Virus record (IMG/VR): IMGVR_UViG_3300007512_000029
Span: 1 to 64,000 of that record
Reading direction: 5' to 3' (one strand)
DNA length: 64,000 bases
From: a virus
In this document: piece after piece, positions 12,654-55,835 of the stretch
How the letters are laid out: each line of letters starts with the position of its first letter
Numbering within the stretch: position 1 is the stretch's first letter
Program-made: the position numbers and the translations under genes
The notes under the pieces: generated by a model
Seen by the model: the letters and a program-made list of their open reading frames with translations, nothing else
What the model was told of the DNA's origin: nothing
Databases searched by the model: none

Positions 12654-12658
12654 ATGAT

Positions 12659-12746: not shown

Positions 12747-12750
12747 TGAG

Positions 12751-12824
12751 AACCCCTACCGGGACTCGAACCCGGACATGAAGGCTGTTTAAGAGCCTGC
12801 CTCTTCCTGTTGGGCTATAGGGGC
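12751..12824 (-). tRNA. tRNA with TAA anticodon (Leu) and short variable loop
   Basis: Acceptor GCCCCTA/TAGGGGT, anticodon stem AGGCT/AGCCT with loop CTTAAAC, T arm CCGGG/CCCGG. The anticodon reads TAA (codon TTA, Leu), but the variable loop is only about 6 nt, unlike normal Leu tRNAs. No encoded CCA. Decoding identity therefore needs care. Confidence 0.75.
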
Positions 12825-12852
12825 GGGTGGGGGCTGGCTCAGCCCCCGGGTA

Positions 12853-13434: not shown

Positions 13435-13494
13435 GTTGACCTCTATGGTTCCGTGGTGTTCCAGCAGCCGCGGAAATACGGAGGTCTCATTCCT

Positions 13495-13520
13495 TATACG
13501 CGAGCGCAGAGGAAAATTAG
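13495..13520 (-). promoter_or_regulatory. phage GCGTATA promoter variant
   Basis: Minus strand CTAATTTTCC, spacer, CGCGTATAAGG: the first T of TCGTATA is replaced, as also at 17814. It precedes the 193-residue gene. Confidence 0.55.
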
Positions 13521-13521
13521 C

Positions 13522-13664
13522 GGGGAGTGATGGAGTCGAACCACCAATGCTTGTGTGCCTTCGCAGGTGTCCTCCCCGAGAGGAGGGAGACGCGGGGCAG
13601 GAGTAATTTCCCGAAGGAAACCTGAGTTACTGTCAGGTTGGGCTCACCAATGCCCAGACTCCCC
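13522..13664 (-). ncRNA. long tRNA-like element (Y-RNA-like candidate)
   Basis: 143 nt. Acceptor GGGGAGT/ACTCCCC, D arm GGGC/GCCC, T arm GGTGG/CCATC with TTCGACT. In place of a normal variable loop there are three hairpins: AACCTGA/TCAGGTT (loop CAGTAAC, no T33), TTTCC-TTCG-GGAAA and CCTCC/GGAGG, then GCGAAGGCACACAAGCAT before the T arm. The 3' end lacks CCA. It resembles bacterial Y RNAs that carry a tRNA-like module, and a Ro gene lies 4 kb away. Confidence 0.5.
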
Positions 13665-13672
13665 AGATGAAA

Positions 13673-13760
13673 TGGCGGAGAGAGAGGGAGTTGAACCCTC
13701 AAGGCCCTAAGGCTCGTCTGATTTCGACTCAGGTGCAGTCGCCAATCTGCTTGCCTCTCC
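13673..13760 (-). tRNA. tRNA-Ser (CGA)
   Basis: Acceptor GGAGAGG/TCTCTCC, anticodon loop GTCGAAA (CGA), long variable arm, T arm with TTCAACT, discriminator G, encoded CCA. Confidence 0.85.
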
Positions 13761-13773
13761 GTAGCTTTTTGAG

Positions 13774-13864
13774 CGGAAGCGGTGGGATTTGAACCCACGC
13801 GAGGTTTTTACTCCTCCTACCCGGGTAGCAACCGAGCCTCTTCACCAGACTTGAGTACGCTTCC
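13774..13864 (-). tRNA. tRNA-Ser (GCT)
   Basis: Acceptor GGAAGCG/CGCTTCC, anticodon stem CTCGG/CCGGG with loop TTGCTAC, long variable arm, T arm GTGGG/CCCAC, discriminator G, no encoded CCA. Confidence 0.87.
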
Positions 13865-14031
13865 AAGAAATCCCCGGTGTGCTGTTACGCCAAAGGTCGG
13901 AGGTAGAGCGGATCTTGCAAGATTCCCGCGAGTCCACGGTCCGACTCACCTGATCCGAATCCGACCACTCATTATAGGAATGGGAGGGTGCTCAAGACCT
14001 CCCTGGCTGCTTCTAAGCCTACCTTCCGGGA

Positions 14032-14107
14032 TGGCACGCCGACTAGGAATCGAACCCAGGACCGCCTGATTTGGAATCAGGTGCTCTCCCAACTGAGCTA
14101 CCGACGC
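14032..14107 (-). tRNA. tRNA-Trp (CCA)
   Basis: Class I cloverleaf: anticodon stem CCTGA/TCAGG with loop TTCCAAA, D stem GCTC/GAGC, T arm CTGGG/CCTAG, discriminator G and encoded CCA. Sole confident non-class-II member of the cluster. Confidence 0.9.
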
Positions 14108-14112
14108 AAAAG

Positions 14113-14203
14113 CGGAGGAGGTGGGGATCGAACCCACACGCCCCTTTACGGGACCACTCGCTTTCCAAGCGAGGACCGACGCCAACCTTCGGATGGCTCC
14201 TCC
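14113..14203 (-). tRNA. tRNA-Ser (GGA)
   Basis: Acceptor GGAGGAG/CTCCTCC, anticodon stem CTCGC/GCGAG with loop TTGGAAA, long variable arm, T arm GTGGG/CCCAC, no CCA. Five bases from the Trp tRNA. Confidence 0.9.
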
Positions 14204-14286
14204 TAATAGACGTTTTCGAGCCTGATCTTCCAACCAGGGGCTTGAAATCTAAGAGCCCCTGGTTGGAATCTATCAGACGTTTGGAG

Positions 14287-14370
14287 TGGGGAGAGAGGGA
14301 CTTGAACCCCCAAGGCCCTAAGGCACCGAGTTTACAGCCCGGGACGCTACCGATTACGCTCTATCTCCCC
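14287..14370 (-). tRNA. tRNA-Tyr (GTA)
   Basis: Acceptor GGGGAGA/TCTCCCC, anticodon stem CCGGG/CTCGG with loop CTGTAAA, long variable arm as in bacterial Tyr tRNAs, discriminator A, no CCA. Confidence 0.9.
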
Positions 14371-14373
14371 AAG

Positions 14374-14461
14374 TGACCGGGGCGGGAGTCGAACCCGCAC
14401 GCCCATACAGGGCACTAGCTTCTGAGGCTAGCGTGACTACCTAAAATTCCACCACCCGGCC
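14374..14461 (-). tRNA. tRNA-Leu (CAG)
   Basis: Acceptor GGCCGGG/CCCGGTC, anticodon stem CTAGC/GCTAG with loop CTCAGAA, long variable arm, T arm GCGGG/CCCGC, discriminator A. Confidence 0.9.
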
Positions 14462-14465
14462 TTTT

Positions 14466-15041
14466 CTATTCCTCCCCCTCTCCGGGGCACTCGCTCTCCC
14501 TGAACTTCTGACCTGACGCCACATCGGCGTGCTTCATGAAGAGGTCAAGCGGCTGAGTCGCGCTGTGAAGCCGCCCCAGCGAATACCTGACGAGGGATTC
14601 CCCTTCTTCCGGGTGAATCACATCCTTCACCTGAACCTGTCCATAGCCGTCCAGGTTCCAGAGCTGCCCGATCAGCGGCTCTGCTTCCTTGTAGGCTGTC
14701 GAGACGGCGGTCTTGTACGGGGCCAGCTTGGCGTATGCCATGAACCTGTCCAGGTCAGTGGTGACGCTGTGCTGCCCCTGCCAGTTCCCCTCGTTGTTCT
14801 TGAGGTGGTAGGTGATCTCTCGATTCTTCTCGTCTACCTCCCACACGAGCACGAGTCCGCGGCCCTTCAGATTCCACAACTGCGGCGGGACCGGCAACAG
14901 GAGAGTCTCCTGCTGGAAAATGGTTGACTCGGGACAGTCGGGGTTCGTTCCACAACTGTGGAAGAGGAAAGCGGTGCTTACCGATCCCGCCAGGAGTCCA
15001 AAGAACGCTGCGGCTGCCCACGGGTTGAGAGTGATGTTCAT
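14466..15041 (-). CDS. membrane-anchored protein with internal duplication
   Basis: 191 residues. Residues 7-28 form one hydrophobic segment followed by FHSCG, so it is an N-anchored or exported protein. The rest is two related halves, each starting with an (P/G)QLWNL(K/D)G(R/Y)G motif and a VxVxxV strand (about residues 52-110 and 124-180). Function unknown. It sits inside the tRNA cluster, with its own promoter at 15064 and AGGAG before the start, and the tRNAs at 14461 and below may be read through from it. Confidence 0.7.
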   Translation of the reverse strand: MNITLNPWAAAAFFGLLAGSVSTAFLFHSCGTNPDCPESTIFQQETLLLPVPPQLWNLKGRGLVLVWEVDEKNREITYHLKNNEGNWQGQHSVTTDLDRFMAYAKLAPYKTAVSTAYKEAEPLIGQLWNLDGYGQVQVKDVIHPEEGESLVRYSLGRLHSATQPLDLFMKHADVASGQKFRESECPGEGEE

Positions 15042-15063
15042 TCCGGTTGCTCCTACGTCTCAC

Positions 15064-15088
15064 TATACGAGGAGCGACCAGAAACTTG
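15064..15088 (-). promoter_or_regulatory. phage TCGTATA promoter inside the tRNA cluster
   Basis: Minus strand CAAGTTTC, spacer, CTCGTATAGTG; precedes the 191-residue gene and probably feeds the tRNAs from 14461 downward. Confidence 0.7.
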
Positions 15089-15093
15089 CTGAG

Positions 15094-15180
15094 TACCTCC
15101 GGCGGGGATCGAACCCGCACGCTCATAAGAGCACAAGCCCCTCAGACTTGCGTGACTACCAAAAATTCCACCACGGAGGC
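15094..15180 (-). tRNA. tRNA-Leu (GAG), second copy
   Basis: Acceptor GCCTCCG/CGGAGGT, anticodon stem CAAGT/GCTTG with loop CTGAGGG, long variable arm, T arm GCGGG/CCCGC. Differs in sequence from the Leu GAG tRNA at 12659. Confidence 0.85.
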
Positions 15181-15329
15181 GAGAAAAGAGAGGCTGGAGA
15201 TTTTCACTCCGAGGGCGTTATCGGGTTCTGATCCGTCTGCTCGGACCTCCCCCCGAAGGGGGACTCGTTTCCGCGTGTCCTCTCCGGTGTACAACCGGTG
15301 CCCCTATGCAGAGTAGGGTGTCCTCTCGA

Positions 15330-15418
15330 TGGTAGCTCCGGTGGGAGTCGAACCCACAACGCCCTGATGGGCACTCGATTTTGAGTCGAGCATGTCTGCC
15401 AAATTCCATCACGGAGCC
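15330..15418 (-). tRNA. tRNA-Leu (CAA)
   Basis: Acceptor GGCTCCG/CGGAGCT, anticodon stem CTCGA/TCGAG with loop CTCAAAA, long variable arm, encoded CCA. Confidence 0.9.
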
Positions 15419-15424
15419 AAAGAG

Positions 15425-15514
15425 CGGAGATAGAGGGACTCGAACCCCCAACCCTTTTTTTTTCAGGGGCTACCTGCTTTCAAGGCAGGCTCTTGATCCA
15501 GCCAGATTATCTCC
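15425..15514 (-). tRNA. tRNA-Ser (TGA)
   Basis: Acceptor GGAGATA/TATCTCC, anticodon stem CCTGC/GCAGG with loop CTTGAAA, variable arm with a nine-A loop, no CCA. Confidence 0.9.
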
Positions 15515-15520
15515 AGATGC

Positions 15521-15594
15521 GGGGAAGGTTGGAGTCGTTGTCATCCCTATAGAGGGTCGGCAGGTATTGAAGCCAGCCAATGCTCAGCTTCCCC
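15521..15594 (-). ncRNA. degenerate tRNA-like element built around an array repeat
   Basis: 74 nt, tRNA-sized. The acceptor (GGGGAAG with CTTCCCC) and D arm (GAGC/GCTT) are intact, but the anticodon and T stems are replaced by one copy of the 34-35.8 kb repeat (TTCAATACCTGCC, CCCTCTATAGGG, ATGACAAC). The T-arm remnant CGACTCC follows directly. It is clearly related to the element at 12488-12653. Confidence 0.45.
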
Positions 15595-15597
15595 AGA

Positions 15598-15685
15598 TGG
15601 TGACTCCGGTGGGAATCGAACCCACACGCCCTAGCGGGCACCGGGACCTAAACCCGGCGCGTCTTCCTAATTCCGCCACGGAGCC
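15598..15685 (-). tRNA. tRNA-Leu (TAG)
   Basis: Acceptor GGCTCCG/CGGAGTC, anticodon stem CCGGG/CCCGG with loop TTTAGGT, long variable arm, encoded CCA. Confidence 0.9.
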
Positions 15686-32095: not shown

Positions 32096-32183
32096 GGTAC
32101 ACCTTTAAAGGAAAGGGAAAACCTGTTGACCTTTTGCTCATGACCCTGTAGTCTCCTTGTCTCCCAAGCAAGGAGACCTGGGT

Positions 32184-33599
32184 ATGACGAAATGGGACGG
32201 CAAGATTGAGGGCCTTGACTTCGTGGTGTGCCTGGGGTGTGGACACAGGGCTAAAAAGCTCTACAGGCACATCGCGAAGCATGGGCTGACTTCAAAGGAG
32301 TACACGGCTAAGTATGGTCCGGATGCCCCTTTGCGGAGCAAGGCTCAAGCTCAGCAGCAGAACCGGGCACGATTGGCCCGGTTAAGCCAGAAGCCCGTCT
32401 CTGCACCGGCAGAGACCAAGGATGTCTCTTGCCCCTCCTGTGAGACCTCTCACCCGGTCTCCAAGTGGATGGGTAGGCTCCACGACCTTCGATGCCCTCA
32501 GTGCAAGGAAAAGGCTCTGGAGGCCCCACGGGAAGTTTGGGGTGAGGAGGGTTCTGACTACGTGGTTTGTGAGGTCTGTGGTCACAAGGCAGAGAATTTG
32601 ACGAGCCACATTCAGAATGCCCACCCGGGGCATAATCAGGGGGCGGTGGTGGCTCTGAATTCTGCGGTGCGGGATAAGACTGCGTTGAAAGGTCGGGTCT
32701 TGTCGGCGGAAACTAGACGGAAAATGTCAGAGAACGCTGGTCGGTGGAACAAGGGCCTGACGAAGGCAGACCACCCTTCTCTGGCTTCAGCCTCAGAAAA
32801 GATGCGGGGGAAGGCACCCTGGTCGAAGGGCTTGTCCGTAGACACGGATGAGCGTCTTCAACGTGCTCGGGAGAAACTCCGGCTTTATGTTGGGGGGGCC
32901 CGCCCTTGGAAGAATGGCCGCGAGGCTGAATTGACCTGGAGTGATTTTGAACCGTACCTGGATTGGAATGGGAGGCTGGATATCAGGTTAATGGCGGAGG
33001 AGACAGGTTGGACGGACGTGACCCTTCGTAAGTACATGAAGGATTTCGGCCTGGAGAATACGGACAAGCATGTTCTCCGCCGGGTCTTCAATCAGGTGAT
33101 TCGCCTTGATAAGGCGAATCTGGAGTCGTACAAACTCGGGAACGGAAAAGTCTCGATCAAGCGGGCGATGAAGGGCACGGGTCACTGCTTCCCGGTGATT
33201 GTGCGAGAGTGCTGGCGACACGGGTTGGAGACTCAGGGGATGGGTGCTCAGCAGCGTCGGTGCTTGGAGGCTGTCTCGGAAGCCTTGGGGGGTTCGGAGT
33301 TTAAGTGGGAATGGCAGTCTCGGAGGCATACCAACCCTCGGACCGGCCACATGTTCAAGTTTGACGGCTACTTCCCGAAGGAGAATCTGATCGTGGAGTT
33401 TCATGGGCCACAACATCGGGACGATAGCTTCCGGTGGAACCAGTACCCGAAGGTGTGGGAGGCCCAGCAGTTTCGCGACGCTGAAAAGGAGCGTCAGGTG
33501 GTGGGCTCGGGGAAGAAGTTCATGGTCATTTGGTATGACGAGCCGTTTGAGGACAAAAGCTATCTGCGAGGTCGGTTAGTTCAGCTCGGCATCCGGTAA
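32184..33599 (+). CDS. free-standing homing endonuclease (Vsr/EDxHD-like)
   Basis: About 471 residues from the ATG at 32184 (AAGGAG upstream). Order: MucR-like Cys2-His zinc motif (CLGCGHRAKKLYRHIAKHG), a second CPSC/CPQC ribbon, a third CEVCGHKAENLTSHI, NUMOD3-like repeats (KMSENAGRWNKGL; KMRGKAPWSKGL), a helical DNA-binding part, and a C-terminal nuclease with FDGYF, LIVEFHGPQH and a final basic strand, as in very-short-patch-repair-like homing nucleases. It lies 89 bases after the sheath stop. The surrounding bases are more AT-rich than neighbours, as expected of an invader. Confidence 0.8.
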   Translation: MTKWDGKIEGLDFVVCLGCGHRAKKLYRHIAKHGLTSKEYTAKYGPDAPLRSKAQAQQQNRARLARLSQKPVSAPAETKDVSCPSCETSHPVSKWMGRLHDLRCPQCKEKALEAPREVWGEEGSDYVVCEVCGHKAENLTSHIQNAHPGHNQGAVVALNSAVRDKTALKGRVLSAETRRKMSENAGRWNKGLTKADHPSLASASEKMRGKAPWSKGLSVDTDERLQRAREKLRLYVGGARPWKNGREAELTWSDFEPYLDWNGRLDIRLMAEETGWTDVTLRKYMKDFGLENTDKHVLRRVFNQVIRLDKANLESYKLGNGKVSIKRAMKGTGHCFPVIVRECWRHGLETQGMGAQQRRCLEAVSEALGGSEFKWEWQSRRHTNPRTGHMFKFDGYFPKENLIVEFHGPQHRDDSFRWNQYPKVWEAQQFRDAEKERQVVGSGKKFMVIWYDEPFEDKSYLRGRLVQLGIR

Positions 33600-38013: not shown

Positions 38014-39744
38014 TCACACTCCCGCCATTTGCTCAGCCGCCGTGATCCCGATGACCTGGACTCCGTACTTTCGAGCCTTCTTCGCCTTCCCACTGTCGGC
38101 GGTGGGGTCGCTGGCGACGAGGTAGGTCAGGGACCTGCTGACCCCGGACTTCATCACGCCCCCGAGGCCCTCAATCGCCCGCTCCAGGTTGGAGTCACGG
38201 AAACCGGTGAAGCAGAAGCTCTTACCCTTCAGGGGGCCGGTCACCGGGGCCTTGATCGTGATCCCAGCCAGAAGGAGATGGTTGATGATCTCTTCGCGAT
38301 CCCGGAGACCGTTGACGAATTCCCGAGCCTTCCTGGTCCCCACGCCGGGGATGGAAGCGATCTCCGCCTCGGTAGCCATCTCCATCTTCGGGAGGGTGTC
38401 GTAGCCCGCCTGGACGATCTTCTGGCACATGGAGCGAGCCATCATGGGAATCCCCAGCGACCCGATGAGCAGGTGAAGCGGGAGGTCGGTCAGCTTCATC
38501 AGGTTGTCGTGAGCGATCTGGACCTTCCGACCCAAACGGGTCCCGTTCCCGTCCCGAATCTGCGTCGCCTTGGACAGGTTGAGCACATAGAGGTCCGCGG
38601 GCTCTCGGATGAGCCCGGCCTCGTAGAGAGGGACGATGATCCCATCACCCCAGCCCTTGATATCGAGCTTGGAGGTCCAGCGGTCAATCGCCCCGGCTCC
38701 CTGAGCCGGGCAGTTGTCGCCCAGACACTTCAGGAAGGCCCCGACCATCGTCAGCTTGCCGGAGCAGGAGGGACAGTCCGTGGGCTGACTCTGGAAGATG
38801 GGGGCGGCGTCGGTGGTCGCCTTGACCCACTTCTCCACCTTGGGGATCACGTCCCCGCGGCGAGAGACGAAGATGGTGTCTCCGATCGCGAAAGCGGGCT
38901 TCCCACTCTTGTGGAGGAGGTCTCCGATGATTCCCCAATTGGCGAGGGAGGCCCTCTTGACACTGGCTCCCGAGAGGACGACTTCCTTGAACACCGCGAC
39001 GGGGGTAACGATCCCGGTCGGGCCGACCTGATTCTCGATCCCCTCAAGAATCGTGTTGGCGGCGTCAGCCGTGAACTTGAACGCAGTGGAGCCCACCGGC
39101 CCCCGACCGCTGGTGCCCAGGCTGTCGAAGAAGTCCCGATCATCCTCCTCGTAGATCAGCCCATCGATATCGTAGTCGAGGGTTGCCCGCTTGGTGTCCT
39201 GGTACTCCTTGTGCCACGCCAGGGCATCGGGGAGATCGATGAAGCACTCCCAGGCTGGGGTCCGGAAGCCCAGCCGCTCCAGCAAGCGGAACTCGACTCG
39301 CTTGCTGGCGATCTTCCTCCCGCCGTCTCGCCGGATCTCGTAGGCGATGACGGTGAGATGCTGATTGTCCGACCGAGCGGAGTCCTCACGCTTGGCGATG
39401 CCCACCGCTCCGTTGCGAGGGTTCACCATCGTGGGAAAGTGAGCCTTCCAGTCGCTCTTGAGGAGCACGATCTCCGCTCGGATGAAGCCGGTGAAGCCCG
39501 GGATCACCTTCACGAGCCCCTTCATCAGCTTCACGTTCTCGGTGATATCGACCCCGACCATCCGGCCGGTCTGGGGATCCTTCTTCCCCCGGGTCACCCC
39601 TCGGGCGAGGCTCCCGTTCTCGTAGTAGAGAGCGCAGTTGTGAGCCAGGGCTCCGCTGCCGACAAAGTAGGCGTGAGTGTCCTTGACTTCCATGTCATAG
39701 GCCACCCGCTCTCCGGGGACTCTCTCGACGCTGACGACTCTCAT
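38014..39744 (-). CDS. ligA: C-terminal half of split DNA ligase, led by a split-intein C fragment
   Basis: 576 residues. Residues 1-36 are a split-intein C part (block F YDMEVKDTHAYFVGSG, block G ALAHN, Cys+1 at 37). From residue 37 it continues NAD-dependent DNA ligase: CALYYENGSLARGVTRG and KKDP of the adenylation domain, OB-fold, the four-Cys zinc finger (CPSC... CLGDNC, about 285-310), helix-hairpin-helix repeats (IPGVGTRKA) and a C-terminal BRCT domain (GKSFCFTGFRDSNLERAI). The active Lys lies in the other gene at 43575-44261, so this half needs trans-splicing to work. It has its own promoter at 39814 and AGGA before the ATG. Confidence 0.9.
   Translation of the reverse strand: MRVVSVERVPGERVAYDMEVKDTHAYFVGSGALAHNCALYYENGSLARGVTRGKKDPQTGRMVGVDITENVKLMKGLVKVIPGFTGFIRAEIVLLKSDWKAHFPTMVNPRNGAVGIAKREDSARSDNQHLTVIAYEIRRDGGRKIASKRVEFRLLERLGFRTPAWECFIDLPDALAWHKEYQDTKRATLDYDIDGLIYEEDDRDFFDSLGTSGRGPVGSTAFKFTADAANTILEGIENQVGPTGIVTPVAVFKEVVLSGASVKRASLANWGIIGDLLHKSGKPAFAIGDTIFVSRRGDVIPKVEKWVKATTDAAPIFQSQPTDCPSCSGKLTMVGAFLKCLGDNCPAQGAGAIDRWTSKLDIKGWGDGIIVPLYEAGLIREPADLYVLNLSKATQIRDGNGTRLGRKVQIAHDNLMKLTDLPLHLLIGSLGIPMMARSMCQKIVQAGYDTLPKMEMATEAEIASIPGVGTRKAREFVNGLRDREEIINHLLLAGITIKAPVTGPLKGKSFCFTGFRDSNLERAIEGLGGVMKSGVSRSLTYLVASDPTADSGKAKKARKYGVQVIGITAAEQMAGV
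39637..39744 (-). mobile_element. split intein, C fragment (36 aa)
   Basis: Length and motifs match natural split-intein C parts such as DnaE (about 36 residues): the YDM(E)V...HAYFVGSGALAHN pattern and Cys+1. Its partner is residues 131-228 of the gene at 43575-44261. Confidence 0.9.
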
Positions 39745-39813
39745 GGGCTGTTCCTATGTAGGAAAGCGTTCACCTTCTCCAGTACCCGAGAGGGACCACG
39801 CTTCCAATCTTCC

Positions 39814-39838
39814 CATACGACCAGCACACGGAAACTTG
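39814..39838 (-). promoter_or_regulatory. phage TCGTATG promoter for the ligase C-half
   Basis: Minus strand CAAGTTTCC, spacer, GGTCGTATGGG; gives the C-half its own transcript within the broken gene. Confidence 0.6.
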
Positions 39839-39864
39839 CCGACCAAAATGCCCCCAGACACGAT

Positions 39865-40185
39865 TCAACGGACTGTAAACCAGTCTCTCATCCGAATTGC
39901 CCGATCAATGGCGTCTTTCGCGTCGTTGATCGACGGCTTGCAGTACCAGAGAGGGAAGTCTACCTGGAAGAAGCAGTGACCCCCATCTATATCCGGTAGC
40001 TGGATGATCCGAAAATTCTTGTAGAAGTGCTCCGTAGCTTCCCTTTGCAGGTCCCTGACATAGTGAAATTGTGCTCGGTCTAAGGCTGCCTCGCACCAGG
40101 GAACAACGATCAAACCTTCCTCTGAGATGAAACCCTGGCAGGTATCGTATGGGTGGCATCGGTGAAATGTCAGGACTATACGCAT
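39865..40185 (-). CDS. hypothetical protein
   Basis: 106 residues with several Cys and His (HRCHPYDTC, PWCEAALDRA, GGHCFFQ), alpha/beta, unrecognised. GAGGA before the ATG. It is one of three genes lodged between the ligase halves. Confidence 0.6.
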   Translation of the reverse strand: MRIVLTFHRCHPYDTCQGFISEEGLIVVPWCEAALDRAQFHYVRDLQREATEHFYKNFRIIQLPDIDGGHCFFQVDFPLWYCKPSINDAKDAIDRAIRMRDWFTVR

Positions 40186-40237
40186 GACGGAATCCTCTAT
40201 TGATATCCGTCAGGTAGTACCGAGGCTGTAATCCGGT

Positions 40238-40870
40238 TCAGAACCCCCACCGGAGAGCTGTCCAGACCATCGTGTCTTTCCTGCTGACGTAGGGGTGAAG
40301 GGCTTCGGGCTCTACGGGTATCCCGAAGGCATCCCGCAGCATCTCGCGATACCTATCGTAGGTGTCGTTGGATCGGTATCTGGGGCTCCCGTCCACGTTT
40401 AGCACCAGGAGAAATTCGCCCAGCCTCTCCCGCTGCCGCTGAGCGAATCTGGCGAGGGCTCTCAAATCTCGCTGGATGGTTCTCTTCCCCTTGACTGCCC
40501 GGAAGGAGTCATAGACGAGGACTCCGACCCGGTCGAAGGCCCCCACCCGCCGGAGGGCCGGAATCAGGGGGCCTTGATGCCAGCTTGCTGGAGCCTCGGG
40601 GCCATAGTGGTTTCTGCAACCTAGGATGATTTCGGGGTCGGTGTCCACGCCGATAAAGCGAGCCGGGGACGCCAGGGCTTCCCGGTCGAGTAGGAGCCGG
40701 AGGGTGGGGGCTTGCTCCCCCGCCAGCTCCATCCAGTCGCAGCGGAGAGCCTGCTGGGAGCGAGACCAGAGGAAGGAAGACCGGCGGACGATCTTGAGGG
40801 CATGTAGCCGGGTCTCGTCCTTGGCCTCAAACCCCTGGTCGGAGAGGGTTGTGCTGGTGAAGTCAGTCAT
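40238..40870 (-). CDS. Rossmann-like protein, possible methyltransferase
   Basis: 210 residues from the ATG at 40870, which overlaps the helicase stop (ATGA-type). FIGVDTDPEIILG followed by an acidic strand VGVLVYDSFR resembles class I SAM-dependent methyltransferases, but the glycine motif I is not clear; assignment is tentative. Confidence 0.4.
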   Translation of the reverse strand: MTDFTSTTLSDQGFEAKDETRLHALKIVRRSSFLWSRSQQALRCDWMELAGEQAPTLRLLLDREALASPARFIGVDTDPEIILGCRNHYGPEAPASWHQGPLIPALRRVGAFDRVGVLVYDSFRAVKGKRTIQRDLRALARFAQRQRERLGEFLLVLNVDGSPRYRSNDTYDRYREMLRDAFGIPVEPEALHPYVSRKDTMVWTALRWGF

Positions 40871-43571
40871 CAGCCAGCTCGTCCAGATTGGCGGGGACAA
40901 AGGGTGTCTTGGCTCGGGGGTTCTTTTTGAACCCCCGGTCGTGTAAAAGCCGGGCGAGTGAGGACCCCCCCGGAAGGCCCCACTTTCCTCGGGCGATGGC
41001 GAGGTTGAGTCCTTGCCAGGACGTGTGAAAACCAATGTAGGGGAAAGCGTCGTCGGTCATCTTGGTTTTGGGGAACTGCCCAAATTGCCGGTAAAACTTG
41101 ATCGCAGCGTTCACCACTGCATCTTCTGTCAGATCCGAGGGCTTGATTATCTTGTTCACCTTGAGCCCCCTCTCATGGAGGAGTCTCGCCAGGGAGCTGC
41201 TTCCCGGCAGGCCCCACCACCCCTCTTTTAATGCTATGTCCACACTCCCCCATGATGTAGAGAAATTAAAATGATTGTCCGCCCGACCGGAAGCCGCTTG
41301 GGGCCAAACTCCATTTTCTCTGTGGAAATTCTGGGAAGCTTGGACCACATCATTTTCCGTAAGGTCCACCGGTTTGACTGCTTGACTAAATTTGAGCCCC
41401 CTCTGGTGAAGTAGTTGGGGGAGGGTTGAACCCCCTGGTAAGGATTGAAAACCGCGATCCAATGCCGCGGCAACTCCTCTCCAGGAGACGGGAAAACCAA
41501 ATTCCCGGGAGGCATCCCCCGATGTTTCGGTGGGCCACTTCCCGGTTCTATTGTGAAAGCCTTTGGCGGCTGTCACGATTAGTTCTTCTGTCAATCCGGG
41601 CCTGGATGCCAGATTGGCTCGTAACCCCCGCCTATGCAATAGTTGTGCAAAGGTCTCCCCACCAGGAAGCCCTCTTAAACCCTCATAGAGGGCACAATGG
41701 ACAGCCGTCCACGTTTCCCGAAACCCGAAATCCTTGGCTGCATCCCCCGTGTTTGAGGAGGGCCACCTTCCCGTTCTCGCATGGTGTCTTTTGGCGGCCT
41801 CCACGATCATGTCTTCGGTAAGATTCGGCTTGTTGAAGTAAGCCGTGAGGCGGCCTACCACGTCCTTCGCATCCTTCCCCGTGAACGCTGAATAGACCGC
41901 CAGGACCCGCGCAGCTTCGGTGTAGGTCTGATCCCGGTAATCCGCGAGAATCTCGTTCCAGGCCGCGATGTAATCCTCGCGGATTTCTCCTATTGGGAGA
42001 GCTGGGCGAGTAGCTCCGACGAACTCCCCCGCCAGTTGCAACCCGGCTTGATGCTCTACAGGACTCAGGCTCAAGCTCGTCAGGTATCCCTGTAGCTGGC
42101 CGACGTTGGGGGCTTCCCCTGTCCGGGATTCATACAGGCCCGCCCAATTTGTGAGACGGGCTCGCATCCTCAGCAGAATGTGGTCCGGGACCTCCACACG
42201 CTGACGGTCCCGAATCCGCTGGACTCGATCCCCCTCGCCTCTCGGTGGACGTGACCAGGATCTCTCCATCCGAATTCGCAGATCCGCTCGGACTTCTCTC
42301 GCGACCTCCCAATCCGCCATGTAGCAGGCGAGCAGGAAGGCGTAGTTGTGGTGCTGCTTTTCAAACTGAGCCAGCACATCGTCCGGGACCTGCTGAACGA
42401 AGAGGGTAATCCGGGCATCCTCCGGGTGTGGGTGGCCGGCGATTTCGCTCTTGTTCCGGAAAGCCCGACCCCATCGCTGAAGGATCAGCCCGAAGCTGCG
42501 GGGGATCCCCATGTTGTAGACGTGGGAGCAGAGGGGCCAGTCCGTGCCCTCATCAAACCGCTTACAGGCGAGGATGACGTCCGTAGTTGAATCCTCATAC
42601 CGAGAGACCTCTTTATCGACCTCCAGTGCCGCCTGAAGCCGCTCAGCGACGTCTCTACCCACCCCGACCGCATCAACTACCCGCACGCCAGGAGAGGCCG
42701 CCTGGAGGGCTTTCAGAAGCCGGTTCGTGAACCGACGAGACCGCTTCGCAGGGACGATAAAGACCGCTTTCGGCTTTCCGTCCGCGACCCACTTGTCTAC
42801 GAGCCACCGATGGGCTGTCCCGGAGTTGTTCTCCTGGGCGGATAGCTCCTCTCCAGCGTACTGCCGAGCCGTTTCGGCTACGGAATCCATGAGCACGGTC
42901 TGAATCTGGAAGTTGCCAGGGGCGTACCCCGAAGCGGCGTGATCAGAAATCGTCCAGATGTGCGTCTTGGTGCCTTCCGGGAAGACCTCTTGACCGTCTG
43001 ACCGGAAGGGGGTCGCCGTAGTCCGGAGGACGGTCCCGCCCCGGGACTCCCATGCCACACCGAAATCACCGATCTTGGTATTCAGCCGCCTGTCGGAGTC
43101 GCTGGTCCCTGCGTGGTGCCCCTCGTCCAGAATGAGTAGCTTCCCTGTCAGGTCATCCGGGAGGGTACGTTCGCCCCAGCAGGCGAGCTGCTGGTGGGTC
43201 GTCAACAGAAACGGCGTGTCCAACTCCCCCGTCAAGAGCGACCTGAAGTTCTCCTGCTTGTGCTCTTCTTCTCGCAGGCGGAGAAATTCACCCTCCCGAG
43301 CGGTGAACGCCACGGCGGCGGACGACCAGGGGATATCGTGAGGATCGACCTGGAGGTACCAGTCCTGCTTGAAATTCTCTTCGATCTGAATCGAGGGAGC
43401 CGCGATCACGACCCCGGAGAATATCGGCCGGGTCTTGGAGACGAGACCCGCCAGGATGAGGCTCTTCCCGCTCCCGGTCGGGGCGACTAGACCCAGGCTC
43501 TTATGCCCATCAGAGGCATAGGCTGACAGGTCCAGCACCGCATCCCACTGGTATGGGCGAAGGGTCTTCAA
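40863..43571 (-). CDS. SF2 helicase with four C-terminal 77-residue repeats
   Basis: 902 residues. Residues 1-480 form a DEAH/type-III-restriction-like SF2 core: Walker A APTGSGKS (about 29-36), DEGHH (motif II), TATPFR (motif III), a Q-x-W-G-R-AFRN motif VI. Residues from about 584 contain four tandem repeats of 76-77 residues, each LTE..(I/V)V.AA..FH...G.WP, an SW(..)V..AL motif, then GLPGGSSLA.LLH.RGL. Each could be a small DNA-binding unit. It begins 3 bases after the ligase N-half, inside the broken ligase. The repeat region has lower GC than the core, which suggests later acquisition. Confidence 0.75.
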   Translation of the reverse strand: MKTLRPYQWDAVLDLSAYASDGHKSLGLVAPTGSGKSLILAGLVSKTRPIFSGVVIAAPSIQIEENFKQDWYLQVDPHDIPWSSAAVAFTAREGEFLRLREEEHKQENFRSLLTGELDTPFLLTTHQQLACWGERTLPDDLTGKLLILDEGHHAGTSDSDRRLNTKIGDFGVAWESRGGTVLRTTATPFRSDGQEVFPEGTKTHIWTISDHAASGYAPGNFQIQTVLMDSVAETARQYAGEELSAQENNSGTAHRWLVDKWVADGKPKAVFIVPAKRSRRFTNRLLKALQAASPGVRVVDAVGVGRDVAERLQAALEVDKEVSRYEDSTTDVILACKRFDEGTDWPLCSHVYNMGIPRSFGLILQRWGRAFRNKSEIAGHPHPEDARITLFVQQVPDDVLAQFEKQHHNYAFLLACYMADWEVAREVRADLRIRMERSWSRPPRGEGDRVQRIRDRQRVEVPDHILLRMRARLTNWAGLYESRTGEAPNVGQLQGYLTSLSLSPVEHQAGLQLAGEFVGATRPALPIGEIREDYIAAWNEILADYRDQTYTEAARVLAVYSAFTGKDAKDVVGRLTAYFNKPNLTEDMIVEAAKRHHARTGRWPSSNTGDAAKDFGFRETWTAVHCALYEGLRGLPGGETFAQLLHRRGLRANLASRPGLTEELIVTAAKGFHNRTGKWPTETSGDASREFGFPVSWRGVAAALDRGFQSLPGGSTLPQLLHQRGLKFSQAVKPVDLTENDVVQASQNFHRENGVWPQAASGRADNHFNFSTSWGSVDIALKEGWWGLPGSSSLARLLHERGLKVNKIIKPSDLTEDAVVNAAIKFYRQFGQFPKTKMTDDAFPYIGFHTSWQGLNLAIARGKWGLPGGSSLARLLHDRGFKKNPRAKTPFVPANLDELADD

Positions 43572-43574
43572 GAC

Positions 43575-43871
43575 CTACTCCCGGTTGTCGGTGACTTCCT
43601 TTCCAGCCAGGAAGCGGGCTTCCACCCACCCCTCTCCCTCGACGTGGAACTTGTGGTCCTCAGTCACGACTACGGTGGTGCCGTCCTCAAAGGTCAACTT
43701 GACCCAATTGTCCCGCACGCCGTTGTTGAACGTATTGGTCACCCGGCTGGTCGTGATCCCACCCTCCGGGCTCCAGGTCAGCACCTCGGGACGGAGGCCC
43801 TCCTCCACGATCTCCCGAATCGGGACCTGCTCCCCGTTGGCGAGATGGATGAGGGTACCGCCATCGAAGCA
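43575..43871 (-). mobile_element. split intein, N fragment (98 aa)
   Basis: Residues 131-228 of the ligase N-half; size and blocks A and B fit a natural split-intein N part (about 100 residues). No homing endonuclease domain is present in either half. Confidence 0.9.
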
Positions 43872-44261
43872 GGAGAAACCGTCGAGTTTTTCTGACCCTA
43901 CGATGCTGGGGAGCCTCCCCGGCCGCCTCGCGGCGTGGGTCTTCCACCAGCCCTCAAACTCTTTCGGGTTCTTAGACTTGTTCTGGCTCCCCATCGGAGC
44001 CGTGTGGGAGAACTTGCTGAAGCTGGTCGCTTCCAGCTCGTCCTCAGGATCGACGGCGTCCCCCCAGACCATGTCGAGGAATGCTCGACCTCCCTTCACC
44101 TCGGGCTTGTTGGGGCTGAACTTCTCAGCCAGCTCCAGGGCGATCTTGAACTTGTCGTAAGCGGCGTCATAGACCGCGTCGGATACCTCCGGGCTCCCCG
44201 CTCGGTAAGCGGCATTCCACTGGATAAGCTGGGCGAGCTGGGCTGCGATCTTGGACGCCAT
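43575..44261 (-). CDS. ligA: N-terminal half of split DNA ligase with a split-intein N fragment
   Basis: 228 residues. Residues 1-130: the helical N-terminal Ia domain of NAD-dependent ligase (DAVYDAAYDKF, residues 28-38), a KFSHTAPMGS segment and the active-site SEKLDGF with Lys 125. At Cys 131 a split-intein N fragment begins: CFDGGTLIHLANGEQVPI (block A), TEDHKFHVEGEG (block B) and it ends at 228. The rest of the adenylation domain is in the gene at 38014. Joining would give ...LDGFS-CALYYENG.... Promoter at 44284; AGAGGAG before the ATG. Confidence 0.92.
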   Translation of the reverse strand: MASKIAAQLAQLIQWNAAYRAGSPEVSDAVYDAAYDKFKIALELAEKFSPNKPEVKGGRAFLDMVWGDAVDPEDELEATSFSKFSHTAPMGSQNKSKNPKEFEGWWKTHAARRPGRLPSIVGSEKLDGFSCFDGGTLIHLANGEQVPIREIVEEGLRPEVLTWSPEGGITTSRVTNTFNNGVRDNWVKLTFEDGTTVVVTEDHKFHVEGEGWVEARFLAGKEVTDNRE

Positions 44262-50909: not shown

Positions 50910-51733
50910 TTCTTACGCCTCCTCTCCCACGGCTTCTTTTTCTTCTTGCTATCCGAATCGAGACCAAGATCTACGTTGACGGCTCGGGTCCCTCCCGTAG
51001 ACCTCGCGAACCTCGGGTCAGTGGCCGCGGAAGGACGCGGCGGGCCCCCCACACTTGGCTCGAAAGCCATCTCTTCATAGCCCCGAGAGGGCTTCCGAAC
51101 CGAAGGTGTCCGAGACTGCCCGTAGACTCGCTCCCAACCCCGGACGAAATCTCCAACCAGATGGTCATAGGAGAGGTGCCCGTCTTCCAGCGGGTAGTTC
51201 GGCTGATCTACTATCCAGGTAGGGTTGCCTGCGTGGAGCCGGAGCATCAGGGCTTCCAGAAAGACCTCCGCCATCGCGGAGTTGCGAGCCGCCTTGACCC
51301 CGAGGTAGATGACCAGCAGTTCAGCGGGGGCGACCAGATCTTCCAGGGAGTAGTGAGACGCGGTGACCACCATCGCATCCGGGTCAAAGATCTCTGCTCC
51401 TTTGACCGCGTGGCTGGCTAACCACGCCGTCATGAGCTGGGCGTCCGTGACTACCTGAAACGACCAGGATGGGGGCCGGCGGATCGCGACATGCCTCATG
51501 TGCTCCACGAACCAGCCACGGGGAGCGGTGATCCAGGTGTTCTTCTCGACCCGCTCCGTGAGTGGGCTGCTTGGAATCGGGTCGGCTTTCAGAAGGCCGG
51601 GCATTCCTCGTTCCACATTTCGCTTGATCGCCTCCCGAAGGCGGCAACCACACCGCTGGACGACTGGTGGCACGAGTCCCTCTTGAGGGACTGGAACGAC
51701 ACCAGCCCCTCCACATACGACACACTCAGCCAT
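50906..51733 (-). CDS. helicase-loader-like protein with zinc motif
   Basis: 275 residues. An N-terminal CVVCGGAG and CGCR metal site, then a region like DnaC/DnaI-type loaders (DLVAPAELLVIYLGVKAARNSAMAEVFLEALMLR) but without a Walker A loop, and a basic SKKKKKPWERRRKK tail. Sits directly upstream of the DnaB-like gene and overlaps both neighbours, which supports a loader role. Confidence 0.6.
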   Translation of the reverse strand: MAECVVCGGAGVVPVPQEGLVPPVVQRCGCRLREAIKRNVERGMPGLLKADPIPSSPLTERVEKNTWITAPRGWFVEHMRHVAIRRPPSWSFQVVTDAQLMTAWLASHAVKGAEIFDPDAMVVTASHYSLEDLVAPAELLVIYLGVKAARNSAMAEVFLEALMLRLHAGNPTWIVDQPNYPLEDGHLSYDHLVGDFVRGWERVYGQSRTPSVRKPSRGYEEMAFEPSVGGPPRPSAATDPRFARSTGGTRAVNVDLGLDSDSKKKKKPWERRRKK

Positions 51734-54700
51734 CGCTACCTCCAGCGCGAGCGTCTTCTACCAGCCCGTCAAAGACTTCCCGAAGCTCGTTGATCTCCTC
51801 GATAATCTCCTCGTTCTCCTCTTCTTCGTCCCCCTCCCCTTTGATCCTCTTCCCGAGGATAGCTTCGACCAGCTTGAGCTTCTTCCGACAGGTCCCCAGA
51901 GTCCGCTCATCCACGGTCCCCCGTGCAATCAGGTGGATCGCATAGACCATGTCATGCAAGATCCCGATCCGAATCATCCGACCGAGAATCTGCAAGTAAA
52001 TCCCAGCCGACCAGGGCGTGTCCAGAAAGACGATCGCCTTCGCTGCCTGGAGATTGATGCTATCGGAACCCGCCTTGGTAATCCAGACGATATTCACCCC
52101 GGAATCGTGAGCCTGGAAGGCGTCCATCGCAGCCTGTCGAGCCGCGATGGTGTTCTCATCTCCGGTCACCCGGACTGACTTGACCTTGAGCTTCTTCTCC
52201 AGCCAGGGCTTCCCGAAGTTCACCATCTCCTTGAATCGGGTGTAGATGATGACCTTCTGACCTTCCAACTCCCCGCCCGGAGCCAGGAGGTCAGCCAACA
52301 CGTCCAGCTTCTCAGACGTCTCCTCGTCGAAGCCGATGAGGCAGGGGTGATTCACAATCTCCTGGCAGTAGGTGATCGCGGTGAGATGCGTGGTCTCTCT
52401 CAGCTCACCGTCTCCAACCTCCAGCAACCCCTCCAACGCCTCCGCGTATTTAGCCGCCTGGAAGGAGGTGAGCCCGTGGCGGATTTCTTTGATCTGAAGC
52501 GGCGGGAGATCCTGCGCTACCTGGAACTTCGCCCTTCCCAGGTGGAAGGGGTCGATCTTGGCCTTGAACCGAGCGATATCCTTCGGCCGATACCCTCGGA
52601 TAACCGGGACCTTCCTGCCTCGACCGATCGGCTGCATCTGGACGATGCAGTAGTCGTTCATAAAGGCGTTCCGGCTGTGGGTAAACAACCCAGGGACCAG
52701 CACCTTCATGATCCCAAACCCTTCCATCAGGTTGTTCTGAATCAGCGTCGCTGTCATTCCCCAGACGCGGTTTGCCCTCTCCACCCCCCCGAGGTGCCTC
52801 ATGATCTGGTGAATCTGAGACGACGGATTCTTGAACGCCTGACAGTTTGACACCAGGGTGCCGTTGGCAAAGAAATTGTGGTTACCTTCGACCTCCAAGT
52901 CATAGACATATCGGTCTTTCTTGGGGTCAGATGGAACCCAAGTTCCGGTCTCTGTGACCCAATCCAGAATTGTTCTTTGCTGGGGACGGGTGTCAAAGTC
53001 GGAAGCCCTGGCACAAGTCTTTTCAGGAAACTTGTACATGACTCCAGGAAACCCACATGGAAGCAGGTTCAGGAACACTGATGTTGCTTGGTCATTGAGA
53101 TAAAGGAGGAGGTGCCCTCTCTTAGACACCTTGATTTGTGCCTTGACCCCCCACTTCCACCACAACCACCCAGCCAACAGCTCAACCTCGCCCCTGTCAA
53201 ACCCACTTGTATGGAGTGTGACTCGGCGGGTCCTACCGTCTTTGCAAACGTGCTCATTCAGGGAGCCGTCATCGGCATACCACACAGCCAAACCAAGAGG
53301 CCCAACATGATTTAGCCAAGAGGCTGTGATCCTCTTACCACCTTGCCAAACGCGGTTCTGCACCGCCCAAGAAGTGACAGCCTCATTGGTTTGGAGCTTG
53401 AATCGAGCATAACCCTTCGGCTGTCCGTCTGTTCTAGGGAAGCCGCCGTTGGCTGATGTGTCTACCTCCGACACCCCCAGAGACTTCAAGATTTCTCGCT
53501 TGAAAATCAGGTAGTCCTTCTGGACCTCAGAATGGCCGAAGGCCACTCCGACCCGGACGTTGTTTGGATAGGCTAGACTGGAGTCCCCCAACAAAGCCCC
53601 GAAAATGACTTGCCATTGATCCTCAGAAGGGACATTTGAGCAGAGGTGTTGTACCTTGGAGCCTTCTTTGAGACGACTCGCCAGAACCTTTCCTCCCTCG
53701 GGGGTATAGAACTTGTGGGTGCTGGTGACACGAAGCCGTCCCCCGAACCGAAAACCGAGATGGAGTAGGTTTCTTCTCCGGCCCCTTTGGAAGGGAACCC
53801 GATGCCAATCAACAACTCTCTTCGGCTCGACCTCTCCTGTTTCTGGGTTCCAAGAAAGAACCTCAACAGGTAATTTCTGAGAGACAATCTTCCCGATTAA
53901 CTCGGTACTACCGTCCGCTAGGAGGACGGGGGTGTGGTACTGGAAGCACTCATCTGCGATGAGGATGTAGTCTTGCCACCCCTGCATCTGCCGGAAGTCC
54001 CGCCGGACAGACCCGTAGCCCATAACCAGGACCGGATAGCGATCCTTCTCCTGCCAAGCCTTATATGCCTTCTTCCTCTTCACGGGGGTCCCCGCGGAGA
54101 CGACCGGATCGACCACCCGGGTGAAATTCTTAAAAGCGAGAGCCCACTGAGTGACAGCGGACTTGTTGCAGATAATGATCACTTTGCGAGTGGGATCCTC
54201 GATTTCCCAGAGGAAGCAGAGGGCCGCGATCACCTCTAAGGTGTTGTGGTTGACTAAGCCGTTACCCACGAAGCAGTGGCGGGGGTCATCCACCTCAATG
54301 TCCACAACCTCCTTGAACCCGGTTTTGATGGATTCGATGGGGTCGTAGAAAAACCTCCGTGATAGAAGCTTTTCGATGCCCTTATAGGCAGGGTGGTCCT
54401 TAGCCACCCCCACCTCGTAGGCCACCTCCAGCATCCACTCCAGAAACCCGTAGGTAGGGTTCCTGCGCCTAGCCCGGACGTGGGTGAGCGTGTTGTAGAA
54501 GGAGGACCCCCATCGAGTGCTAATCGAGAACCCATGCTTCTTGCAGCCGACAAGAATCTCCGACCGCAACAGCTCGACAGCACCCCAAGCGAACGGGACA
54601 ATATCGTGGTTGGGGTTGGACTTGTTCGGGATGGCTCCCGCCAAACTACTCTTCTTACGAGAGGAGATGAAACCCACCTCGGCCTCGAAAATCCGGGCGT

Positions 54701-55835
54701 CCTCCCCGAACATTGTGAGCCGCCAGTAGGTGTGGTCGCGACCCTGGACCATCTTGGGGGAACGATTGGAGACGATTCCCAGGCGCAAGAGGAGGAGTTG
54801 AACCTCTCGAAGAAGCCTCTCAGAGGCGGAGCTGATCTCCACACCACCAGAAACAACGGACCCCTCTCCCTCAAACAGACCTCGGAGGAACGCTACCTGT
54901 GAATCCCGGGTCCCGATCATGACGGGGTCAGGAACGCGCTTGTCAGCGGGCAAGCCGTAGTCCACCCCCATCCCCTCCAGATACTTGCGGAGGTAGACGC
55001 TATCGATCCGCATCTCTTTCTGGTCGGACTCCTTGCCCCATCCGAACTGCTCCGCCAGGAGCCCCTGAATGTCTCGATGAACCGCTGGATTCTTCTCGGG
55101 ACACTGCGAGATAGTGAACACGTAGGGGTGATTCACCCAGGCTTCCCCCACGATGTATCCGAGCAAACGGGCTAGGCTCGGGTTGAGCTGCGTAGGGACA
55201 GAATACACCTTGGCGTTAGGGGCCACGGTGGGGAGCCGGAGCGGGGGCTCCTCGTCGGGGAACTGCGTAGGAGTCCTGTCCACGCAGAGGTAGTCCCCGA
55301 CTTCCAGTTCTCCTGTCTTGATGAACTGCTCTCCCGTGATCCCCCTCACGAACAGAGGGTGGACCAGTGAGCCCTCAACCTCGAATCCGTAGCGGCTCCG
55401 CACCCTCCGGGTCGGCTTGTTCCCGCAGTAGTAGAAGCTCTTGACCAGGACCATGTCGGACCCGATCCGAACCTGAACCCCAGAGCCCTCCAGGGAGGCG
55501 AAGGAGTCGGGGTCCATAGGACCCGGCTGGAGATCCCCGATGGGGACCAGCCCCCTATTGGTGTCCAGCAGGGTGTCTTTCGTGACGCACTTACCCAAGC
55601 CCGTGTCGTCCCCCACCAGGAACCTCTTCATGGAGAGGAGATGGACGACCATCTGGGCCTGATAGTAGCGGAGGGAGAAAGGCTTCTCGGTCCCGTCTAG
55701 TGCCTTGTACGAGGGCACCATCAGCGACGAGGCCCGGAGAACCAAGTCCTCTTTCTCCCGGACAGCTTTCAGCTTCTCATAAGTGGCAGCCAGTACGGGA
55801 TCCATAAGCCTCCTCGGGACCCCTCCCTCTACCAC
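51726..55835 (-). CDS. SNF2-type DNA helicase/translocase with two inteins
   Basis: 1369 residues, about 552 after splicing. Exteins: RYYQAQMVVHLL, P-loop DDTGLGKT (completed after intein 1), a motif Ia-like VIIICNKSAVTQWA, DEC(Q) box ADE/CQAFKN (completed after intein 2), TATL motif III, then helicase C with KVIIYTRFKEMV, KAGSDSINLQ and GRMIRIG (motif VI). The C-terminus is acidic and helical. Inteins cut both the P-loop and the Walker B box, so ATPase activity depends on two splicing events. Confidence 0.85.
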   Translation of the reverse strand: MVEGGVPRRLMDPVLAATYEKLKAVREKEDLVLRASSLMVPSYKALDGTEKPFSLRYYQAQMVVHLLSMKRFLVGDDTGLGKCVTKDTLLDTNRGLVPIGDLQPGPMDPDSFASLEGSGVQVRIGSDMVLVKSFYYCGNKPTRRVRSRYGFEVEGSLVHPLFVRGITGEQFIKTGELEVGDYLCVDRTPTQFPDEEPPLRLPTVAPNAKVYSVPTQLNPSLARLLGYIVGEAWVNHPYVFTISQCPEKNPAVHRDIQGLLAEQFGWGKESDQKEMRIDSVYLRKYLEGMGVDYGLPADKRVPDPVMIGTRDSQVAFLRGLFEGEGSVVSGGVEISSASERLLREVQLLLLRLGIVSNRSPKMVQGRDHTYWRLTMFGEDARIFEAEVGFISSRKKSSLAGAIPNKSNPNHDIVPFAWGAVELLRSEILVGCKKHGFSISTRWGSSFYNTLTHVRARRRNPTYGFLEWMLEVAYEVGVAKDHPAYKGIEKLLSRRFFYDPIESIKTGFKEVVDIEVDDPRHCFVGNGLVNHNTLEVIAALCFLWEIEDPTRKVIIICNKSAVTQWALAFKNFTRVVDPVVSAGTPVKRKKAYKAWQEKDRYPVLVMGYGSVRRDFRQMQGWQDYILIADECFQYHTPVLLADGSTELIGKIVSQKLPVEVLSWNPETGEVEPKRVVDWHRVPFQRGRRRNLLHLGFRFGGRLRVTSTHKFYTPEGGKVLASRLKEGSKVQHLCSNVPSEDQWQVIFGALLGDSSLAYPNNVRVGVAFGHSEVQKDYLIFKREILKSLGVSEVDTSANGGFPRTDGQPKGYARFKLQTNEAVTSWAVQNRVWQGGKRITASWLNHVGPLGLAVWYADDGSLNEHVCKDGRTRRVTLHTSGFDRGEVELLAGWLWWKWGVKAQIKVSKRGHLLLYLNDQATSVFLNLLPCGFPGVMYKFPEKTCARASDFDTRPQQRTILDWVTETGTWVPSDPKKDRYVYDLEVEGNHNFFANGTLVSNCQAFKNPSSQIHQIMRHLGGVERANRVWGMTATLIQNNLMEGFGIMKVLVPGLFTHSRNAFMNDYCIVQMQPIGRGRKVPVIRGYRPKDIARFKAKIDPFHLGRAKFQVAQDLPPLQIKEIRHGLTSFQAAKYAEALEGLLEVGDGELRETTHLTAITYCQEIVNHPCLIGFDEETSEKLDVLADLLAPGGELEGQKVIIYTRFKEMVNFGKPWLEKKLKVKSVRVTGDENTIAARQAAMDAFQAHDSGVNIVWITKAGSDSINLQAAKAIVFLDTPWSAGIYLQILGRMIRIGILHDMVYAIHLIARGTVDERTLGTCRKKLKLVEAILGKRIKGEGDEEEENEEIIEEINELREVFDGLVEDARAGGSDG
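52845..53948 (-). mobile_element. intein 2 in the SNF2 gene (motif II site)
   Basis: 368 residues (630-997). Begins CFQYHTPVLLADG, carries VTSTHKFY (block B), two LAGLIDADG-like motifs (IFGALLGDSSL and GLAVWYADDGSL) and ends FFANGTLVSN before Cys+1. The host residues form the DEC(Q) box. The terminal Asn is preceded by Ser rather than His. Confidence 0.88.
54243..55589 (-). mobile_element. intein 1 in the SNF2 gene (Walker A site)
   Basis: 449 residues (83-531). Begins CVTKDTLLDTNRGLVPI after GLGK, with LLGYIVGEAWV and LRGLFEGEGSV as endonuclease motifs and CFVGNGLVNHN at the end before Thr+1. Insertion directly after the catalytic P-loop Lys is a well-known preferred intein site. Confidence 0.9.

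What the first reader, a model, noticed from the sequence alone, without database searches (positions are those of the whole stretch)
38014..44261. DNA ligase gene broken in two and reconnected by a split intein
The N-half (43575-44261) stops after the active-site SEKLDGF and a 98-residue intein N fragment; the C-half (38014-39744) starts with a 36-residue intein C fragment and continues CALYYENG into the OB, zinc, HhH and BRCT domains. Three genes (helicase, Rossmann-like protein, small protein) and a separate promoter lie between. The catalytic Lys and most of the adenylation domain would only meet by protein trans-splicing. Fractured genes with split inteins are known from phage metagenomes (gp41, dnaE, nrdA, IMPDH types); a ligase example is, to my knowledge, not standard.
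Basis: partly seen in the sequence, partly recalled or inferred. Interest (0 to 1): 0.92.

Follow-up and report, generated by a model that had tools for sequence, protein, structure and literature searches.

The report
Split-intein DNA ligase missing its endonuclease
A phage makes its DNA ligase as two separate proteins that a self-splicing protein tag (a split intein) should stitch together, and the selfish endonuclease gene that normally sits between the halves has been overwritten by other genes, leaving only its tail end.

Summary
Confirmed. In this phage record (IMG/VR) the NAD+-dependent DNA ligase is two genes. The N-half (43575-44261) carries the active-site lysine motif and an intein N-fragment; the C-half (38014-39744) carries an intein C-fragment and the rest of the ligase. 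NCBIfam's intein N- and C-terminal models pass their cut-offs exactly at the junctions, and the two ligase parts abut in the LigA model. No other ligase was found in the 70.7-kb record. Three further divergent phage contigs have a ligase split at the identical site (KLDGxS|C), each with a Vsr/DUF559-like endonuclease gene between the halves, as in the 'fractured genes' known from phage metagenomes. Two intact relatives keep the native Cys at the empty site. The window differs: it has a helicase, a Rossmann-like protein and a small protein instead, and just before the C-half 38 codons of the same endonuclease's C-terminus survive (E=9e-6, best of the whole window). It looks like a mobile fractured gene that lost its endonuclease to cargo genes and is now fixed as a split gene. 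Trans-splicing is inferred, not shown. The 'separate promoter' is not supported. I could not read the 2009 fractured-genes paper, so novelty of the ligase host is unsettled.

The parts
43575..44261 (-). Ligase N-half gene, 228 aa: domain Ia, start of the adenylation domain with motif I KLDG, then the intein N-fragment
   Evidence: TIGR00575 residues 13-131 E 4.7e-6; phrog_3869 NAD ligase E 6.3e-10
43872..44261 (-). N-extein, residues 1-130, ending SEKLDGFS
   Evidence: Junction set by intein Cys1 and by the alignment of four loci and intact relatives
43575..43871 (-). Intein N-fragment, 98 aa (plus stop), blocks A (C1) and B (TEDH)
   Evidence: TIGR01445 38.5 bits over cut-off 24.5; invariant C1, T70, H73 in four loci
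40863..43571 (-). ResIII/SF2-type helicase with repeated C-terminal units, 902 aa, in the slot where relatives have the endonuclease
   Evidence: PF04851 E 1.3e-10, phrog_16 DNA helicase E 1.8e-24; absent from the other three split-ligase contigs
40238..40870 (-).
   Evidence: no family above cut-off
39865..40185 (-). Small protein, 106 aa, unknown
   Evidence: no family match
39741..39857 (-). Remnant of the Vsr/DUF559-like endonuclease C-terminus (LGAFWSASFRVLVVWEDWKRGPSRVLEKVNAFLHRNSP*), stop overlapping the C-half ATG
   Evidence: hmmsearch with profile of three relatives' endonucleases: E 9.2e-6, best of all six frames of the window; 22.1 bits against at most 4.3 in 2,000 shuffles of the gap
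38014..39744 (-). Ligase C-half gene, 576 aa: intein C-fragment, then rest of adenylation domain, OB, Zn, HhH, BRCT
   Evidence: Pfam PF01653, PF03120, PF00533 above cut-off; TIGR00575 37-565 E 1.6e-89
39637..39744 (-). Intein C-fragment, 36 aa, ending His-Asn; Cys37 is the +1 residue
   Evidence: TIGR01443 18.9 bits over cut-off 15.6; H, N and Cys+1 invariant in four loci

Best explanation
The phage's only detected DNA ligase (NAD+-dependent) is encoded in two pieces and should be made whole by protein trans-splicing. The split intein sits between motif I (KLDGFS, with the AMP-accepting lysine) and Cys+1. Its 98-residue N- and 36-residue C-fragments should bind, form a HINT fold and splice by class 1 chemistry (Cys1, C-terminal His-Asn, Cys+1), releasing a 670-aa ligase. 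Shown here: the anatomy, the intein and ligase homology, four distinct loci at one site, intact empty-site relatives, and the endonuclease remnant. Inferred: that a Vsr-like endonuclease lay between the halves in an ancestor and helped the element spread; that in this lineage it was replaced by a helicase, a Rossmann-like and a small gene, so the element is no longer self-mobile; and that splicing still occurs.
For: Intein models above cut-off at both junctions and LigA model continuous across the join. PDB inteins matched by the joined-fragment profile. Nucleophiles and block residues invariant in four loci that share only 30-45% extein identity with the window. Same site split in L006, L046 and L027 with a homologous Vsr/DUF559-like endonuclease between. 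Intact ligases with native Cys at the site. Endonuclease C-terminus remnant at the expected place. No other ligase in the record.
Against: No splicing experiment. The records may be incomplete, so a second ligase elsewhere is not excluded. The Lys290 position of E. coli LigA is Glu here, but it is also not Lys in the intact relatives. Structure models of the halves were of low confidence. How the cargo genes got in is unknown; they have no relatives in the searched collections outside this phage.
Confidence: 0.87

Rival explanations
1. The halves assemble without splicing, as a non-covalent two-subunit ligase; the intein pieces only hold them together or are inert.
For: Native two-chain NAD ligases exist: PDB 9hu3 and the two-gene ligase in L053's contig.
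Against: Those breaks lie between OB and Zn domains, not inside the adenylation domain beside the catalytic lysine. All splicing residues are invariant in four divergent loci, and intein fragments are more conserved than the exteins.
Confidence: 0.07
2. The ligase is dead: a decaying fractured gene in a phage that relies on its host's ligase.
For: The endonuclease is already a remnant, and the Lys290-equivalent is Glu.
Against: Both halves are fully open with no frameshift, keep motif I, NPRN, DIDG, motif V Lys and four zinc Cys, and show no difference between the two assemblies that differ in the cargo genes.
Confidence: 0.05
3. The window never had an endonuclease: a continuous intein was split by insertion of the three genes, and the 38-codon tail is a chance resemblance.
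For: The window itself has no intact endonuclease between the halves.
Against: The remnant scores E 9e-6 over all six frames of 64 kb, lies exactly where relatives have the endonuclease end, and no shuffle comes near it.
Confidence: 0.04

Closest known systems
Fractured genes with split inteins and free-standing Vsr-like endonucleases (Dassa et al. 2009, Nucleic Acids Res 37:2560; content from my own knowledge, paper not held)
   Same: A conserved DNA-metabolism enzyme broken in two same-strand genes by a split intein, in phages; relatives L006, L046 and L027 have the endonuclease between.
   Different: In the window the endonuclease is only a 38-codon remnant and other genes fill the slot. 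Whether a ligase was among the eight enzyme types of that paper could not be checked.
Cyanobacterial split DnaE intein
   Same: Split intein joining two separately encoded enzyme halves with no endonuclease left; class 1 residues with Cys+1; N-/C-fragment sizes close to the 102/36 listed for Npu DnaE (PMC11766414).
   Different: DnaE halves are far apart in a bacterial chromosome (own knowledge); here they are 3.8 kb apart in a phage, with an endonuclease remnant still present.
Two-subunit NAD+-dependent ligase (PDB 9hu3; phrog_3359/phrog_3498)
   Same: Ligase encoded in two genes.
   Different: Broken between OB and Zn domains, no intein, stays in two chains.
RNA ligase intein of Mycobacterium phage Bobby (L012)
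   Same: An intein directly at motif I of a nucleotidyltransferase (KLHG|C).
   Different: Continuous intein in one gene, in an RNA ligase, two residues closer to the lysine.

Membership tests
Fractured gene with split intein | Conserved enzyme broken into two same-strand genes at one point | tested here: met
   LigA model abuts at position 109; joined protein aligns end to end with intact ligases
Fractured gene with split intein | Split intein fragments at the break | tested here: met
   TIGR01445 and TIGR01443 above cut-off
Fractured gene with split intein | Free-standing endonuclease gene between the halves | tested here: not met
   Window has only a C-terminal remnant; met in L006, L046 and L027. 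So the window is called a derived variant, not a typical member
Fractured gene with split intein | Trans-splicing of the product | not testable with these tools
   Needs expression of both halves
Class 1 intein | Cys/Ser1, block B TxxH, C-terminal His-Asn, Cys/Ser/Thr+1 | tested here: met
   C131, T200-x-x-H203 of the N-half; H35, N36, C37 of the C-half; invariant in four loci
Class 1 intein | HINT fold | tested here: inconclusive
   AlphaFold models pLDDT 52.6 and 48.6; sequence profile matches solved inteins
NAD+-dependent DNA ligase (LigA) | Domains Ia, adenylation, OB, Zn, HhH, BRCT in order | tested here: met
   TIGR00575 over both halves; Pfam adenylation, OB and BRCT above cut-off, Zn and HhH below cut-off; four Cys seen in the alignment
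NAD+-dependent DNA ligase (LigA) | Motif IV Lys (E. coli Lys290) | tested here: not met
   Glu in the window; Glu, Tyr or Gln in most relatives including intact L051, Lys in L006
NAD+-dependent DNA ligase (LigA) | Ligase activity | not testable with these tools
   Needs assay or complementation
Vsr/DUF559-like homing endonuclease (the remnant) | Homology to the endonucleases at the same place in relatives | tested here: met
   E 9.2e-6, shuffle control
Vsr/DUF559-like homing endonuclease (the remnant) | Complete nuclease domain | tested here: not met
   Only profile positions 277-312 of 323 remain

The most novel reading that the evidence does not exclude
With its endonuclease gone, the split intein has been kept because it is useful: trans-splicing serves as an on-switch for the ligase, whose active-site lysine is held apart from the rest until both halves, and the cargo genes encoded between them, are expressed.
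Probability: 0.08. Interest if true: 0.8.

Novelty: new variant of a known kind. Interest (0 to 1): 0.62.

Why it matters
How naturally split genes arise is an open question: phage fractured genes still carry their endonuclease, while cyanobacterial DnaE is split with no trace of one. This locus looks like the step between, with the endonuclease overwritten by other genes but its tail still readable, and three relatives showing the earlier state. It also gives a set of four split inteins at the motif I site of a ligase, a possible new source of protein-ligation tools.

Tried and rejected
AlphaFold models of the N- and C-halves were too poor for fold comparison, so no fold search was run. Junction patterns in viral contigs gave chance hits besides the true ones. 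The genome-contig scan found only intein-like matches, outside the ligase part. Phage hits of the N-half in a ribonucleotide reductase (L014), an Rhs-like protein (L013), a tail-fibre-like protein (L015) and RNA ligases (L011, L012) are inteins or Hint domains in other proteins. Origin of the cargo genes: no relatives of the helicase in phage or plasmid records, nor in other viral contigs beyond the same phage; none of the other two in phage records. Separate promoter: no more than chance. dN/dS between loci is saturated at synonymous sites, so only identities were used. The tree groups split and intact ligases but does not resolve single versus repeated insertion. Dassa 2009 is not in the library; no held paper uses the ligase-intein phrases I searched.

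Full report
WHAT IS THERE. The window lies in an IMG/VR virus record of 70,721 bases. On the minus strand the N-half gene 43575-44261 (228 aa) ends 98 residues after SEKLDGFS, and the C-half gene 38014-39744 (576 aa) begins with 36 residues ending ALAHN, followed by CALYYENG. NCBIfam's intein N-terminal model covers residues 131-206 of the N-half at 38.5 bits (cut-off 24.5); the C-terminal model covers 15-37 of the C-half at 18.9 bits (cut-off 15.6). The LigA model TIGR00575 is matched up to position 109 by the N-half and from 109 onward by the C-half. Pfam finds the adenylation, OB and BRCT domains in the C-half above their cut-offs. A profile of the joined intein fragments matches solved DnaE and RecA inteins and, weakly, gp41-1. 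PF01653 was found only in the C-half of this record, and no ATP-dependent ligase was found.

NOT AN ARTEFACT. Two other IMG/VR contigs carry the same arrangement, one identical and one with 6 differences over 8,001 bases, none of them in the ligase halves or the intein.

RELATIVES. Pattern and profile scans of viral contigs found three more ligases split at the identical place: L006 (3300025121_000045), L026/L046 (3300023257_000008) and L027 (3300037047_000080). All end the N-extein at KLDGxS and start the C-extein at Cys, with intein fragments of 96-105 and 36 residues. In each, one gene lies between the halves. These three proteins are homologous to each other and match REase_MTES_1575, DUF559 or Vsr models, mostly below the cut-offs but consistently. 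Two related ligases, L051 (402-kb contig) and L053 (222-kb contig), are uninterrupted at the site and read KLDGASC and KLDGISC, so the +1 cysteine is native to the empty site. A tree puts the four split and two intact ligases together (support 86/81) without resolving the order among them. Intein fragments are much more alike than exteins (window against relatives: N-fragment 54-63% versus N-extein 30-33%), which fits horizontal spread or strong constraint.

THE WINDOW'S DIFFERENCE. Between its halves lie a ResIII-type helicase, a Rossmann-like protein and a 106-aa protein. The helicase is absent from the other three split-ligase contigs, and none of the three genes has a match in phage records. 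A profile of the relatives' endonucleases, run over all six frames of the window, has one significant hit: 39741-39857, E 9.2e-6, profile positions 277-312 of 323. It is the endonuclease's C-terminus, directly before the C-half, with its TGA overlapping the C-half ATG. Shuffles of that gap never exceed 4.3 bits against 22.1. The homology begins 8 bases after the stop codon of the small ORF. The simplest reading is that other genes replaced most of the endonuclease. How this happened, and whether the three genes arrived together, is not known.

HOW IT LIKELY WORKS. The products should associate through the intein fragments, splice by class 1 chemistry and yield a 670-aa ligase (inferred). Each half has a ribosome-binding-like stretch ahead of its start (read by eye), and the genes are tightly packed, so one transcript is plausible; no extra promoter stands out. 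Cautions: the position of E. coli LigA Lys290 (numbering from my own knowledge) is Glu here, though it is also not Lys in the intact relatives, and structure models were too poor to confirm the HINT fold.

A FURTHER CASE. In L006 the ligase is in three pieces. The split intein breaks motif I, and a second endonuclease-like gene (TnsA-like N-terminal domain, weak NUMOD3) separates the OB part from a Zn-HhH-BRCT gene. The same OB/Zn break occurs in L053's contig, where the two genes lie some 5.7 kb apart, and as two chains in PDB 9hu3, so that break probably works without splicing.

KNOWN OR NEW. Split inteins in fractured phage genes, with Vsr-like endonucleases, are known (Dassa et al. 2009; recalled, paper not held). 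As I recall it, that paper reports eight enzyme types; I could not check whether a ligase is one. Held papers do not use the ligase-intein phrases I searched. The replacement of the endonuclease by other genes, with a readable remnant, is to my knowledge not described, hence 'new variant of a known kind'. Because the endonuclease, a defining feature, is absent, I do not file the window as a typical fractured gene but as a derived form of one.

Noticed in passing
window 51726-55835 (-): A SNF2-type helicase gene with two inteins in one open frame: one at the Walker A motif (GLGK|C...HN|T) and one at the DE box (ADE|C...SN|C), with LAGLIDADG endonuclease domains. With the ligase, this phage has three inteins.
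   Followed up: partly
L006:7938-12219: A ligase in three pieces: a split intein plus Vsr-like endonuclease at motif I, and a TnsA-like/NUMOD3 gene between the OB and Zn domains.
   Followed up: yes
L053:7851-9071 and G006:C1:24473-25225 (L070): A ligase encoded as two genes broken between OB and Zn domains with no intein at motif I.
   Followed up: partly
L020:5896-9269: A terminase-like gene carrying one intein and then broken by a split intein, with an endonuclease-like extension after the second intein N-fragment.
   Followed up: no
L012:2452-4854: Mycobacterium phage Bobby RNA ligase has an intein immediately after motif I (KLHG|C), so motif I of nucleotidyltransferases seems a repeated target of inteins.
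   Followed up: no
window 32157-33599 (+): A 480-aa protein with weak endonuclease-family matches beside the tail-sheath gene; possibly another free-standing homing endonuclease.
   Followed up: no
window 40863-43571 (-), C-terminal half: The helicase ends in several repeats of about 65 residues (LTEDxxVxAA..FxxxxGxWP...FGF..SW..V..AL..G..GLPGGSSLARLLHxRGL) with no matching family above cut-off.
   Followed up: no
window 12658-15685 (-): Cluster of nine tRNA genes, one (14373-14461) with an unusual four-base anticodon call (cacg) by ARAGORN.
   Followed up: no
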